Shown here one piece after another: positions 249-10,456 of a DNA stretch of 24,016 nt (positions are counted from its first letter, which is position 1; each line of letters starts with the position of its first letter). The translations under genes and the position numbers were made by a program. Where the stretch lies: positions 1-24,016 of the IMG/VR virus record IMGVR_UViG_3300045781_000053. One strand, written 5' to 3'. The notes under the pieces are model-generated. The model had not been told where the DNA came from. It ran no database searches and saw only the letters and a program-made list of their open reading frames with translations. Source of the DNA: a virus.

Positions 249-681
249 TCCTCTCGTGGGTGAGACCAAGTTGCCCACCCTGAAAGACCTGCTCCCGCTG
301 GAGCATATGCCTGGCCAGCCCTGGGCCTTTGTGCAGAATGGCCGGTCCATGGAATACATGCGGCAAACGGGAAGACTGTGTGTGCCAATGATCACGCTGG
401 AGTATGACGAACTCAAAGAGCTCGCTGGGCTGGATGGAGATCGAAAGCTCGCCGAGATACTGGCTCCGCAGTACGTTGCCGAGATGGTTCGCCGCATCAA
501 CGTCCACGACGAGCTGCTGGATGCGCTGCGCCTGGCGGAGAAGTGCATGGAGACCATGATGCGCCAGGTGACGCCGCGCAGCGAGTTCCGCTCCACCGAG
601 GAGTACGAAGCCTTCATCAAGGCCAGCCCTCAGCTGGTGCTGGTGCGTGAAGCCATCCAGAAAGCGAGGGTGCAGGGATGA
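241..681 (+). CDS. Small helical phage protein, paralog of the upstream gene
   Basis: This encodes 146 residues from a GTG at 241, overlapping the upstream stop and preceded by GGAG at 231-234. An in-frame ATG at 202 lies inside the upstream gene and has no better ribosome site, so I prefer 241. The N-terminal half (about 1-75) contains GETKLPTLKDLLPLEHMPGQ and LEYDELKELAGLDGD. The C-terminal half matches the upstream protein in layout: a conserved INVHDELLDALRLAEK helix, a variable segment, then REAIQKARVQG. The gene ends in an ATGA overlap with the next one. It sits in an early operon with a J-domain protein and a methyltransferase. No enzyme motif is visible and function is unknown. Confidence 0.8.
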   Translation: MADPLVGETKLPTLKDLLPLEHMPGQPWAFVQNGRSMEYMRQTGRLCVPMITLEYDELKELAGLDGDRKLAEILAPQYVAEMVRRINVHDELLDALRLAEKCMETMMRQVTPRSEFRSTEEYEAFIKASPQLVLVREAIQKARVQG

Positions 682-1322
682 TCAGCAACTATCCCCTTTG
701 TTGGCCAGAAGGCTGGAAGCGCACTGAGAGCTTCCGCATGCAACGTGCCAAGTTCGGACGCTCAGTGCAGGTGGAAGGCCGAAGCTGGAAGAGCAAGCAG
801 GACCTGAGCGTGTACGACTCTCTCAGCCGCGTGCTGGAGCAGCTTGAGCGCATGGGCATTGATCGCCAGGACGTCATCATCAGCAGCAACGTTCCCACGC
901 GCCTGGATGGGATGCCGCGGTCCGGATCAAGCGAGCCAAAGGATCACGGCGTAGCGGTGTACTGGAAGGAACGCAACAAGCCGATGCGCTGCATGGCGAT
1001 TGACCGCTATGACCGCATGGCCGACAACCTGGCGGCCGTGGCCGCCACGCTGGACGCCATGCGAGCCATCGAGCGGCACGGCGGCGCGCAGATCCTCGAC
1101 AGGGCATTCACCGGCTTTGCCGCTCTGCCTGAAAAGGCTTCGCAACCATGGCGCGAAACACTCGGCCTGCAGGGAGAAGGAGTCATCTCGATTGAAGTTG
1201 TCGAGTCACGCTTCAAGGAGTTGGCGCGCAAGCATCATCCGGACGTGGGTGGAGACGCTGAGAAGTTCCGCGAGTTAGTCGAGGCGAGAGACGCCGCGCG
1301 GCTGGAGGTGGCCCGTGGCTGA
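678..1322 (+). CDS. Phage J-domain protein
   Basis: This is a 214-residue protein. The C-terminal part (about 159-210) is a short J domain: helix II FKELARKHH, the HPD signature at 187-189, then helix III EKFRELVEARDAARLE. J domains stimulate the ATPase of Hsp70 (DnaK) through HPD. The N-terminal part (1-155) begins YPLCWPEGWKRT and contains DVIISSNVPTRLDGMPRSG and CMAIDRYDRMADNLAAVAAT. This layout is familiar from many tailed-phage proteins annotated as J-domain or DnaJ-like, although the role of the N-terminal domain is not established. The start overlaps the upstream stop (ATGA), and the 3' end overlaps the GTG of the methyltransferase. It may recruit host DnaK for replication or assembly, which is inference. 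Confidence 0.9.
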   Translation: MISNYPLCWPEGWKRTESFRMQRAKFGRSVQVEGRSWKSKQDLSVYDSLSRVLEQLERMGIDRQDVIISSNVPTRLDGMPRSGSSEPKDHGVAVYWKERNKPMRCMAIDRYDRMADNLAAVAATLDAMRAIERHGGAQILDRAFTGFAALPEKASQPWRETLGLQGEGVISIEVVESRFKELARKHHPDVGGDAEKFRELVEARDAARLEVARG

Positions 1323-3123
1323 GACCATGGAGGTTCTCCACTTCCATCTCTTCTGTGGACTTGGCGGCGGCGCGCGCGGATTCAATCGTGGGCGCGCTGA
1401 ACTCAACGGACTTCGTGCGCGCTTCCGCTGTATCGGGGGCGTGGATGTTAGTCCTGCATCGATCCGCGACTTCAATAAACTCGCCGGCGTACCTGGTACG
1501 GTCCTCGATCTCTTCGACCGTGAACAGTACATCGCCTTCCATGGCTGTGAGCCGCCTGCCGACTGGCGAGAAGCTACGACGGATGACATCAAAGCCGCTG
1601 CGCATCAGGAGCGGCCGAACATCGTGTTTCTTTCTGCACCCTGCAAAGGGTTCAGTGGGCTACTCTCCGAATCGCGCAGCAAGACGGCAAAGTATCAGGC
1701 GCTGAACCGTCTCACGCTTCGCGGCGTGTGGCTGATGCTGGAAGCATGGGGAGATGATCCTCCGGAGCTGATTCTCTTTGAGAACGTCCCGCGGATCGCG
1801 ACGCGCGGCCGTGCGCTGCTGGATCAGATCGGCGCGTTGCTGAGACGTTACGGGTACGCGATCGCAGAGAACTTCCATGACTGCGGCGAACTGGGTGGAC
1901 TTGGGCAATCGCGCAAACGCTTTTTATTGGTGGCTCGCCACCTGGAGAAGGTTCCTCCATTTCTGTATGAACCCCCACGGCGTGCGCTGCGCGCTGTGGG
2001 CGACGTGCTGGGGAGGCTTCCTATGCCGGGCGACATCGCCGGTGGACCGATGCATGCGCTCCCTAACCTGCAATGGAAGACGTGGGTGCGGCTGGCATTC
2101 GTCGAGGCAGGCTCCGACTGGCGTTCACTGAATAAGCTGCGCGTGGTGGATGGCAAGCTGGCTGACTACCTGCTCATGCCAGAGTATGGCTATTCGGACG
2201 TGCTGGGCGTGCTGCCGTGGCAAGCTACGGCGGGAACAGTAACGGGCGGAGCGTCGGCAACCCGGGGACGATTCTCAGTTGGGGATCCTCGCTTCGAAGG
2301 ACGTGAGTTCGGGCAGTTCGGCGTTAGACCATGGAATGAGGCGAGTGGAACTGTAACGAGCCAGCGCTCACCAGGTCAGGGATGCTTCGCTGTCGCGGAT
2401 ACACGAGCAACCGGAGTGTATGGCGGCGGAGGCAAGTATGTCGTCACACCGTTCGACTCTCCATCGAACACAGTCATCGCGCAGAGCACGACCGGACACG
2501 GCAGTTTTGCCGTCGCGGATCCGCGCTGCGCAAACTATCGTCCGGATGCTCACGAGAACAAGCTCCGCATCGTTGCATGGGATCACGTCTCGCGCACGGT
2601 GACCGGCGGCAAGCATGTCCAATCTGGACTGCTGTCGGTTGCAGATCCTCGGCTGCAGGTGCAACGCACGAAGGGCGACAACTATCTCACCGCCGGTCAT
2701 TACGGGGTGGTGGGATGGGATCAATCATCCGGTGCGGTGTCGGCGGCGGCCGGGCATGACAACGGACGCTGGAATGTCGCAGATCCTCGACTGCCTGAAG
2801 CAAATGAAAAGCTGGTAGCGATCATCCGCGCGCTCGATGGCACATGGCACCGTCCCTTCACAACGTTGGAACTAGCTGCCCTGCAGAGTCTGGTAGATCC
2901 TGACGAGCTGCTCGACCTGGACGGAAGCTCCGACAGCGCCAAGCGCGAGCGGATCGGCAACGCAGTGCCTCCGGGCGCGGCGCAGGCCATCGCGGATCTG
3001 ATGGGACAGACGCTGTTACTTGCCTGGTCAGGACAGAGCTTCGCGCTGTCGTCCACTCCAGTGTGGGTGCAGCCGGTAGCCGTCGCGCTGAGCGTGCGAC
3101 CCGCGGAGGTGGGCCGGGAATAA
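1315..3123 (+). CDS. DNA (cytosine-5) methyltransferase with internal repeats
   Basis: This is a 602-residue orphan C5 methyltransferase. Motif I is FCGLGGGARGF (13-23). The catalytic motif IV is SAPCKGFSG with Cys110. Motif VI is FENVP (155-159), motif VIII is QSRKR (198-202), and motif X is RIGNAVPPGAAQAI (546-559). It transfers methyl groups from S-adenosylmethionine to cytosine; phages use such enzymes to evade host restriction or for regulation. Between motifs VIII and X, where the target-recognition domain lies, are five 28-residue repeats ending in VADPR-like sequence. At 602 residues it is longer than typical Dcm-type enzymes (about 330-480). The GTG start at 1315 has GGAGG at 1304-1308 and overlaps the upstream stop. 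An ATG at 1327 has no ribosome site. No cognate restriction enzyme is visible. Specificity cannot be read from sequence. Confidence 0.93.
   Translation: MAETMEVLHFHLFCGLGGGARGFNRGRAELNGLRARFRCIGGVDVSPASIRDFNKLAGVPGTVLDLFDREQYIAFHGCEPPADWREATTDDIKAAAHQERPNIVFLSAPCKGFSGLLSESRSKTAKYQALNRLTLRGVWLMLEAWGDDPPELILFENVPRIATRGRALLDQIGALLRRYGYAIAENFHDCGELGGLGQSRKRFLLVARHLEKVPPFLYEPPRRALRAVGDVLGRLPMPGDIAGGPMHALPNLQWKTWVRLAFVEAGSDWRSLNKLRVVDGKLADYLLMPEYGYSDVLGVLPWQATAGTVTGGASATRGRFSVGDPRFEGREFGQFGVRPWNEASGTVTSQRSPGQGCFAVADTRATGVYGGGGKYVVTPFDSPSNTVIAQSTTGHGSFAVADPRCANYRPDAHENKLRIVAWDHVSRTVTGGKHVQSGLLSVADPRLQVQRTKGDNYLTAGHYGVVGWDQSSGAVSAAAGHDNGRWNVADPRLPEANEKLVAIIRALDGTWHRPFTTLELAALQSLVDPDELLDLDGSSDSAKRERIGNAVPPGAAQAIADLMGQTLLLAWSGQSFALSSTPVWVQPVAVALSVRPAEVGRE
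2209..2790 (+). repeat. Five 28-residue repeats in the methyltransferase recognition region
   Basis: Five protein repeats align without gaps at residues 299-326, 337-364, 377-404, 419-446 and 465-492. The DNA positions are 2209-2292, 2323-2406, 2443-2526, 2569-2652 and 2707-2790. The shared pattern is V-x-x-W/F, seven residues later TVT or a close variant, then G-x-F-x-VADPR at the end. Linkers between repeats are 10, 12, 14 and 18 residues and rich in Gly, Tyr and Asn. The DNA copies have diverged, so this is a protein-level repeat, not a recent DNA duplication. It probably builds an extended target-recognition domain. Confidence 0.85.
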
Positions 3124-5841: not shown

Positions 5842-6255
5842 TTAGACGGCGCGGATCTCCAAGGTCTTGCCGAGGGCGCTCACGGCCGATGCGATGCGGT
5901 CGATCTTGGTGGCGTGGCGGATGTTGATGATACGGTTCACTTCCTGTGGAGTGGTCTTCATCCTCCGCGCCAGCTCGGTGGGGCGCACCTTCTGCTCGAT
6001 CATTTCGTTCAGCAGGAGAACCTTGGCCGAGACGCTCATGGGCAGCTCGACCACTTCTTGGCCGCGCTTCGGTTTTGACGGAGGCGGCACGGAGCGGTTG
6101 TCCTCGAAGTAGAAATCCAGCGCGGTCTCCAGCGCGTCGGCCGCGTGGAGCAGGGCGTCTTCCCGGTCGTCGCCCTGGGTGATGGCCTCCGGAATATCCG
6201 GGAAGGTGACGAGGATGAACTTTCCGTCCTTCACGAGTTTGACAGGGTAGCGCAT
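5842..6255 (-). CDS. hicB: HicB antitoxin
   Basis: This 137-residue antitoxin belongs to the HicB family in the long, E. coli-like form. The N-terminal domain (1-60) has the family pattern MRYPVKLVKDGKFILVTFPD, IPEAITQGDDREDALLHAAD and LDFYFEDN. It is the partial RNase H-like fold that binds and blocks HicA. The C-terminal part (about 72-130) has LPMSVSAKVLLLNEM and a helix-turn-helix, LARRMKTTPQEVNRIINIRH, used for DNA binding and autoregulation. It follows hicA by 8 bases with a strong AGGAGG, so antitoxin output should be high. The paired operators upstream of hicA are its probable targets. It would neutralise HicA and repress the operon until degraded. Confidence 0.95.
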   Translation of the reverse strand: MRYPVKLVKDGKFILVTFPDIPEAITQGDDREDALLHAADALETALDFYFEDNRSVPPPSKPKRGQEVVELPMSVSAKVLLLNEMIEQKVRPTELARRMKTTPQEVNRIINIRHATKIDRIASAVSALGKTLEIRAV

Positions 6256-10126: not shown

Positions 10127-10456
10127 ATGCCGATCCGGTCACGCCGTCCCTGCACCGAGCCGGGGTGCGGCGCACTGACCGAACAGGGATTGTGCGCCGA
10201 GCACCGCCGCGAGCGGGATCGGCGCCGTCCAACCTCGGCGGAGCGGGGATACGACCGGCGCTGGCGCCAGGTGCGCGCGGCGTTCCTGCGCGAGCACCCG
10301 ATATGCCAGGCGAGTTGCGGATGCGCTCGCCTGGCTTCTGAGGCACACCACGTGGTTCGTATCGCCGACTGTGGCGCACGGTACGATACCGCTAACTTAC
10401 AGGCGCTGTGTGACTTACATCATGACGCACTGGGTGGGTCTGGCGGACGAGTATGA
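10127..10456 (+). CDS. HNH endonuclease of the packaging module
   Basis: This 109-residue protein has a zinc-binding N-terminus (C9, C14, C23, H26) and an HNH core: C60 and C64, the catalytic pair in SEAHHVV (H74-H75), N90 in TANLQAL, and CDLHH (95-99). HK97-type phages encode such HNH proteins (HK97 gp74) next to the terminase, where they assist cos cleavage by terminase. The usual trailing HSRKT is replaced by DALGGSGGRV. The position directly before the small terminase and a candidate cos region supports the packaging role. Confidence 0.92.
   Translation: MPIRSRRPCTEPGCGALTEQGLCAEHRRERDRRRPTSAERGYDRRWRQVRAAFLREHPICQASCGCARLASEAHHVVRIADCGARYDTANLQALCDLHHDALGGSGGRV

What the first reader, a model, noticed from the sequence alone, without database searches (positions are those of the whole stretch)
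2209..2790. Array of five gap-free 28-residue repeats in a cytosine methyltransferase recognition region
Seen: five copies with the pattern W/F ... TVT ... G-x-F-x-VADPR, separated by linkers of 10, 12, 14 and 18 residues. Known: the target-recognition region lies between motifs VIII and X. Inference: the repeats may form a modular recognition arch, allowing several or long targets, or a solenoid that shifts specificity by copy number.
Basis: partly seen in the sequence, partly recalled or inferred. Interest (0 to 1): 0.62.

Follow-up and report, generated by a model that had tools for sequence, protein, structure and literature searches.

The report
Swappable DNA-recognition cassettes in phage methyltransferase
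A bacterial virus carries a DNA-methylating enzyme whose target-reading region is a row of small interchangeable cassettes; related viruses mix, add and drop whole cassettes, probably so that one enzyme can mask many different sites from the host's DNA-cutting defences.

Summary
The repeats are real. In the 602-aa C5 cytosine methyltransferase (1315-3120, phage genome fragment), five 28-aa copies lie at aa 299-326, 337-364, 377-404, 419-446 and 465-492. The family is large, in proteobacterial phages and prophages. In 233 distinct relatives, copy number runs 4-10 and there are 106 different cassette orders built from about 45 types. Nearly identical enzymes differ by exact gain, loss or exchange of whole cassettes. 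Within a cassette, two segments carry the type and co-vary; the same type is almost never used twice in one enzyme. This is what serially arranged target-recognition domains should look like, as in the multispecific Bacillus phage enzymes, but the enzymes are not closely related. I judge it a multispecific orphan anti-restriction methyltransferase. Not shown: any target sequence, DNA contact, or fold of the repeats (two AlphaFold runs failed there). A solenoid reading one long site is not excluded but is less likely.

The parts
1315..3123 (+). C5 cytosine DNA methyltransferase gene, 602 aa (GTG start, stop TAA at 3121-3123)
   Evidence: Pfam PF00145 E 5.7e-11; PHROG 32684 E 1.5e-109 and 116 E 6e-49; fold search of the model: DNMT1/MET1/M.HaeIII catalytic domains
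1636..1656 (+). motif IV, A-P-C110-K-G-F-S (catalytic Cys; the usual PCQ is PCK, invariant in the family)
   Evidence: invariant P109 C110 K111 in A1 and A5
2176..2292 (+). cassette 1 (aa 288-326), type H
   Evidence: module HMM and clustering
2293..2406 (+). cassette 2 (aa 327-364), type C: loop I ~ REFGQ, loop II QRSPGQGCF
2407..2526 (+). cassette 3 (aa 365-404), type D: loop II QSTTGHGSF
2527..2652 (+). cassette 4 (aa 405-446), type G: loop II GKHVQSGLL
2653..2790 (+). cassette 5 (aa 447-492), type B, the near-constant last cassette (last in 230 of 233 proteins)
2791..3123 (+). conserved C-terminal part with HRPFTTLELAALQ and R-E-R-I-G-N-A-V-P-P (motif IX/X region)
   Evidence: invariant columns in A1 and A4; DNMT1 aligned over HRPFT...GNAVPP

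Best explanation
The gene encodes an orphan, phage-borne, multispecific C5 cytosine methyltransferase. One conserved catalytic domain carries a tandem array of cassettes of about 40 aa. Each cassette is a small target-recognition unit: a shared framework (V..W....-TV, G20, VADPR) presenting two variable loops, loop I just before the framework V and loop II after TV. Each cassette most likely reads its own short cytosine-containing target, so the number and mix of cassettes sets how many restriction sites in the phage genome are masked. Phages gain, lose and trade whole cassettes by recombination, changing the set of protected sites while the catalytic part stays the same. Shown by computation: repeats, cassette boundaries, exchange, two co-varying type-specific segments, non-redundant sets, phage/prophage context. 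Inferred: that the loops touch DNA, that each cassette has a separate target, and that the function is anti-restriction.
For: Repeats far above shuffles. 233 distinct proteins with 4-10 cassettes, 106 orders, about 45 types. Near-identical enzymes differing by one cassette step: L226 vs L241 (core 96.8% and C-end 99.6% DNA identity, one 42-aa cassette absent), L283 vs L285 (two cassettes replaced by one unrelated cassette, at most 62% DNA identity), L224 vs L166 (one added), L252 vs L253 (first cassette 66% DNA, the others 88-99%). 29% of pairs with cores 95-100% identical have different arrays; 128 array changes on the core tree, and rare types change almost as often as in shuffles. Type identity sits in positions -6..-2 and 14-22 while the framework is shared; normalised mutual information between the two loops is 0.229, against 0.07 between loops and the segment that separates them. 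Same type twice among middle cassettes in 7 of 106 arrays against 47.5 or 39.5 expected (0 of 2000 randomisations as low); no within-protein pair shares 7 of 9 loop II residues, against 6.9% between proteins. Two-loop TRDs contacting the major groove are described for DNMT1 (PMC13207087), and DNMT1-type enzymes are the nearest solved structures. Neighbours: integrases, RdgC, RecT, ArdC-type anti-restriction factors, other DNA methyltransferases. Bacillus temperate phage enzymes with arrayed TRDs are known to protect against many RM systems (PMC12707154, PMC8936443).
Against: No target sequence is known for any member. AlphaFold2 gave no fold for the array. The cassette HMM does not find the TRDs of the SPbeta enzyme (score -4.2), so the likeness to the Bacillus enzymes is of architecture, not of sequence. 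Non-redundancy could partly reflect recombinational loss of duplicates or shared descent. Cassette order is far from random (e.g. C before D 63:4), which free independent units would not require. Few near-identical cassettes are shared by distant cores (6 pairs), so recent exchange is mainly between relatives.
Confidence: 0.68

Rival explanations
1. The cassettes act together: they form one continuous arch or solenoid along the DNA, each reading a few bases of a single long target, so composition and copy number set one long specificity.
For: Cassettes are tandem, similarly sized and ordered; first and last types are nearly fixed (A/H first in 223, B last in 230 of 233) and the middle order is biased, as a composite site could require.
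Against: Repeated use of one cassette type, expected if cassettes spelled out bases, is strongly depleted. Single-step insertions and deletions of a middle cassette are tolerated between near-identical enzymes. No repeat fold was predicted.
Confidence: 0.18
2. The array is structural or serves protein binding; one cassette (probably the constant last one, B, next to motif IX) does all target reading and the others only tune DNA affinity or block host factors.
For: The last cassette is nearly constant (230 of 233) and sits where the TRD of ordinary C5 enzymes ends; the repeat region is not confidently structured in the models.
Against: Middle cassettes show the same two-segment, co-varying, type-specific pattern as a specificity element and form non-redundant sets; a structural filler would need neither.
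Confidence: 0.1
3. Epigenetic or lysis-lysogeny regulation by a single-specificity orphan methyltransferase, with repeat expansion being neutral replication slippage.
For: Phage orphan methyltransferases can regulate the viral cycle (PMC12707154); copy number varies.
Against: Cassettes within one protein are diverged (loop II identity mean 0.24, third codon positions near random at the seams), so arrays are not products of recent slippage; exchanges bring in unrelated types.
Confidence: 0.04

Closest known systems
Multispecific C5 methyltransferases of Bacillus phages (SPbeta, phi3T, rho11, SPR, H2; M.(phi)BssHII)
   Same: Phage-borne orphan C5 enzymes with a common catalytic part and serial target-recognition units placed between motifs VIII and IX; PMC8936443 and PMC12707154 state the tandem TRDs and the protection against several RM systems. 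My recollection is that those TRDs are also about 40 aa.
   Different: No significant sequence relation of the whole protein (BLASTP E 22; hhalign only over catalytic aa 7-215), and the cassette HMM does not match the SPbeta TRDs. Here 4-10 units and about 45 types, against 2-5 units as I recall for the Bacillus enzymes; motif IV is PCK.
DNMT1 / MET1 class C5 methyltransferases
   Same: Nearest solved structures by profile and by fold of the catalytic part; shared GSDWR motif just before the recognition region; two-loop TRD.
   Different: Eukaryotic maintenance enzymes with one large TRD and a CpG target; no cassette array; profile match is weak (E 0.011).
PHROG 32684 / PHROG 116 phage DNA methyltransferases
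   Same: The window protein matches these phage protein families (E 1.5e-109 over aa 7-243 and 6e-49). Annotated relatives: phages H66, LKA5, Dobby, PP9W, PBC5.
   Different: Annotated only as hypothetical protein or cytosine methyltransferase; I found no description of the cassette array in the papers searched.

Membership tests
C5 cytosine DNA methyltransferase (PF00145) | Pfam match above gathering score | tested here: met
   42.9 bits against cut-off 22; all 42 members of A5 match PF00145 at E 0.01 or better
C5 cytosine DNA methyltransferase (PF00145) | catalytic PC, ENV, QxRxR and GN(A/S)VPP motifs | tested here: met
   P109 C110, E156 N157 V158, Q198 x R200 x R202, G548 N549 A550 V551 P552 conserved; third position of PCQ is K instead of Q
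C5 cytosine DNA methyltransferase (PF00145) | NCBIfam dcm TIGR00675 curated cut-off | tested here: not met
   34.3 bits against 100.65: a divergent branch of the superfamily
Multispecific (multi-TRD) C5 methyltransferase, functional class | several target-recognition units in series between motif VIII and IX | tested here: met
   five cassettes at aa 288-492; that each is a recognition unit is inferred
Multispecific (multi-TRD) C5 methyltransferase, functional class | natural exchange of whole units between relatives | tested here: met
Multispecific (multi-TRD) C5 methyltransferase, functional class | methylates two or more distinct short targets | not testable with these tools
   needs methyl-seq or restriction-protection assays
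Bacillus SPbeta-type multispecific enzymes, as a lineage | detectable homology of the TRDs | tested here: not met
   module HMM score -4.2 on SPbeta MtbP; shuffled controls reach 2.7; BLASTP E 22
Type II restriction-modification modification enzyme | partner restriction endonuclease adjacent | tested here: inconclusive
   none annotated next to the gene in H66 or LKA5; no restriction endonuclease family among the 25 commonest in 100 flanking proteins, but rarer families were not listed
Solenoid / TALE-like DNA reader | regular repeat fold following DNA | tested here: inconclusive
   repeat region pLDDT below 50 in both AlphaFold2 runs
Solenoid / TALE-like DNA reader | repeat types reused within one array | tested here: not met
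   7 of 106 arrays with a repeated middle type against 39.5-47.5 expected

The most novel reading that the evidence does not exclude
A natural combinatorial recognition code: a very large phage enzyme family in which about 45 (or more) roughly 40-aa cassettes, each a two-loop reader of a different cytosine-containing target, can be strung 4-10 at a time on one catalytic domain in many different subsets, so that specificity can be read from, and possibly rewritten by, cassette composition.
Probability: 0.35. Interest if true: 0.82.

Novelty: new variant of a known kind. Interest (0 to 1): 0.6.

Why it matters
Serial target-recognition domains in one methyltransferase were found in a handful of Bacillus phages decades ago, and I know of no structure showing how several of them share one active site. 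This family offers hundreds of natural enzymes, some with nearly identical catalytic parts that differ by a single cassette, i.e. ready-made experiments to assign a target to each cassette type, and a possible parts list for C5 methyltransferases of chosen specificity. It would also show how phages track the changing restriction systems of their hosts.

Tried and rejected
Sequence search of the PDB with the single protein: nothing. PDB search with the cassette profile alone: only weak NF-kappaB matches, E 0.2, dismissed as chance. Two AlphaFold2 runs, one with position-matched and one with type-matched homologs: catalytic part good, repeats pLDDT mostly 25-45, so no claim on arch or solenoid. 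A shared spacing 'hydrophobic - 8 residues - T[VLI]' between cassettes and SPbeta TRDs looked attractive, but the pattern also hits three places outside the TRDs in the same protein, so it is not used. DNA homology at the VADPR seams as a recombination site: third codon positions are near random and the median exact run is 6 bp, so no special site. Conserved operon with neighbours: the DnaJ-like neighbour is found near only 8 of 160 relatives and other window neighbours near none, so context is not conserved. Papers: searches for this family or for multi-TRD enzymes in proteobacterial phages found nothing specific; two key Bacillus papers are not held.

Full report
What is there. The window is a 24-kb phage genome fragment (virus record) with terminase, portal, capsid, prohead protease and tape-measure genes. 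The gene at 1315-3123 (+) encodes a 602-aa protein that matches the C5 cytosine methyltransferase family PF00145 (E 5.7e-11) and the phage families PHROG 32684 and 116. Catalytic motifs are all present, with the unusual, family-wide PCK instead of PCQ in motif IV. The five repeats are at the stated coordinates with the stated linkers. Five of their ten pairwise scores exceed the best found in any of 300 shuffles.

The unit is linker plus repeat. I collected relatives from viral contigs, bacterial genomes and phage records and located all copies with an iterated HMM. Among 233 distinct proteins the copy number is 4 (4 proteins), 5 (107), 6 (88), 7 (20), 8 (13) and 10 (1). Position-wise, the framework (V1, W4, V11, G20, V24-A-D-P-R28) is shared by the types. 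Because types were defined from these sequences, I tested the link without types: normalised mutual information between the two segments is 0.229, against 0.075 and 0.070 between either segment and the residues that separate them. So a cassette is 38-46 aa with two variable loops that travel together.

Cassettes are exchanged as wholes. Clustering gives about 45 types and 106 different arrays. The window's array is H-C-D-G-B; the commonest arrays in the collection are A-C-D-F-G-B and A-C-D-G-B. The last cassette is of type B in 230 of 233 and the first of type A or H in 223. Close pairs show the events directly. L226 and L241 are 96.8% (core) and 99.6% (C-end) identical in DNA, yet L241 lacks one complete 42-aa cassette. 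L283 and L285 are alike outside, but two cassettes in one are replaced by a single unrelated one in the other. L166 has one cassette more than L224. L252 and L253 differ in the first cassette only. Of pairs whose cores are 95-100% identical, 29% have different arrays. On the tree of the catalytic parts I count 128 array changes and 63 copy-number changes; rare types such as M, O, P, Q, J and K come and go almost as often as shuffled labels. Near-identical cassettes on distant cores are few (6 pairs), so most visible exchange is between relatives.

Arrays behave as sets of different specificities. Among middle cassettes, only 7 of 106 arrays use one type twice, where 47.5 (pooled) or 39.5 (position-specific) are expected; none of 2000 randomisations is as low. 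No two cassettes of one protein share 7 of 9 loop II residues, while 6.9% of between-protein pairs do. This fits one cassette per target, where a second copy would be useless. It does not fit a base-by-base code, where reuse would be normal. A caveat: recombination between identical neighbours would also purge duplicates, and order is clearly not free.

What it most likely does. In DNMT1, two TRD loops lie in the major groove and read the target (PMC13207087), and the DNMT1/MET1 class is nearest by profile (E 0.011) and by fold of the catalytic part. The GSDWR motif of DNMT1 aligns with the family's GSDWR just before the first cassette. I infer that each cassette is a minimal two-loop recognition unit. 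Temperate Bacillus phages are known to array several such units in one C5 enzyme and thereby resist several restriction systems (PMC12707154, PMC8936443). The neighbours of the relatives are those of phages and prophages: integrases, RdgC, RecT, ArdC-type anti-restriction proteins and other DNA methyltransferases. No restriction endonuclease is annotated beside the gene in phages H66 and LKA5. The best reading is therefore an orphan multispecific methyltransferase for anti-restriction.

What is not shown. No member has a known target in the sources I could search. Both structure predictions left the array without a confident fold, so arch, solenoid and beads-on-a-string cannot be told apart by structure. 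The SPbeta enzyme shares the plan but not detectable sequence in the recognition region, so I call this a new variant of the multi-TRD kind and not a member of the SPbeta lineage.

Verdict. Observation confirmed, with the unit extended to include the linker. Interpretation partly supported: modular and probably multispecific, yes; arch or long target, no evidence. Interest 0.6: the kind is known, but the scale, the number of cassette types and the natural single-cassette pairs appear undescribed in the papers I could search, and they make the question of how serial TRDs work directly testable.

Noticed in passing
window 1636-1656 and all relatives: Motif IV reads A-P-C-K-G-F-S instead of the usual P-C-Q; the lysine is invariant in both family alignments, including relatives at about 40% identity.
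   Followed up: partly
window 678-1322: Upstream gene with a weak C-terminal DnaJ match (PHROG 9210) overlaps the methyltransferase start by 8 bases; related proteins lie near 8 of 160 relatives.
   Followed up: partly
window 5842-6255 (-): HicB-like antitoxin (PF15919, E 9e-7); a HicA partner was not looked for.
   Followed up: no
L103, between cassettes 2 and 3: Insertion SVADPRSVADPR, a tandem duplication of the framework seam, in an otherwise ordinary array.
   Followed up: no
L383:28716-30047: SPbeta mtbP shows two T(L/V)-containing units in its recognition region, a simpler version of the same plan.
   Followed up: partly
phage records S75107 / D13409 (phiCTX): The short phiCTX records hold an unannotated piece matching aa 544-594 of the methyltransferase (71% identity); the PBC5 annotation also cites phiCTX orf41 as similar.
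   Followed up: no
window 10127-10456: Weak HNH endonuclease match (PF01844, E 0.0027, below cut-off) just upstream of the terminase genes.
   Followed up: no
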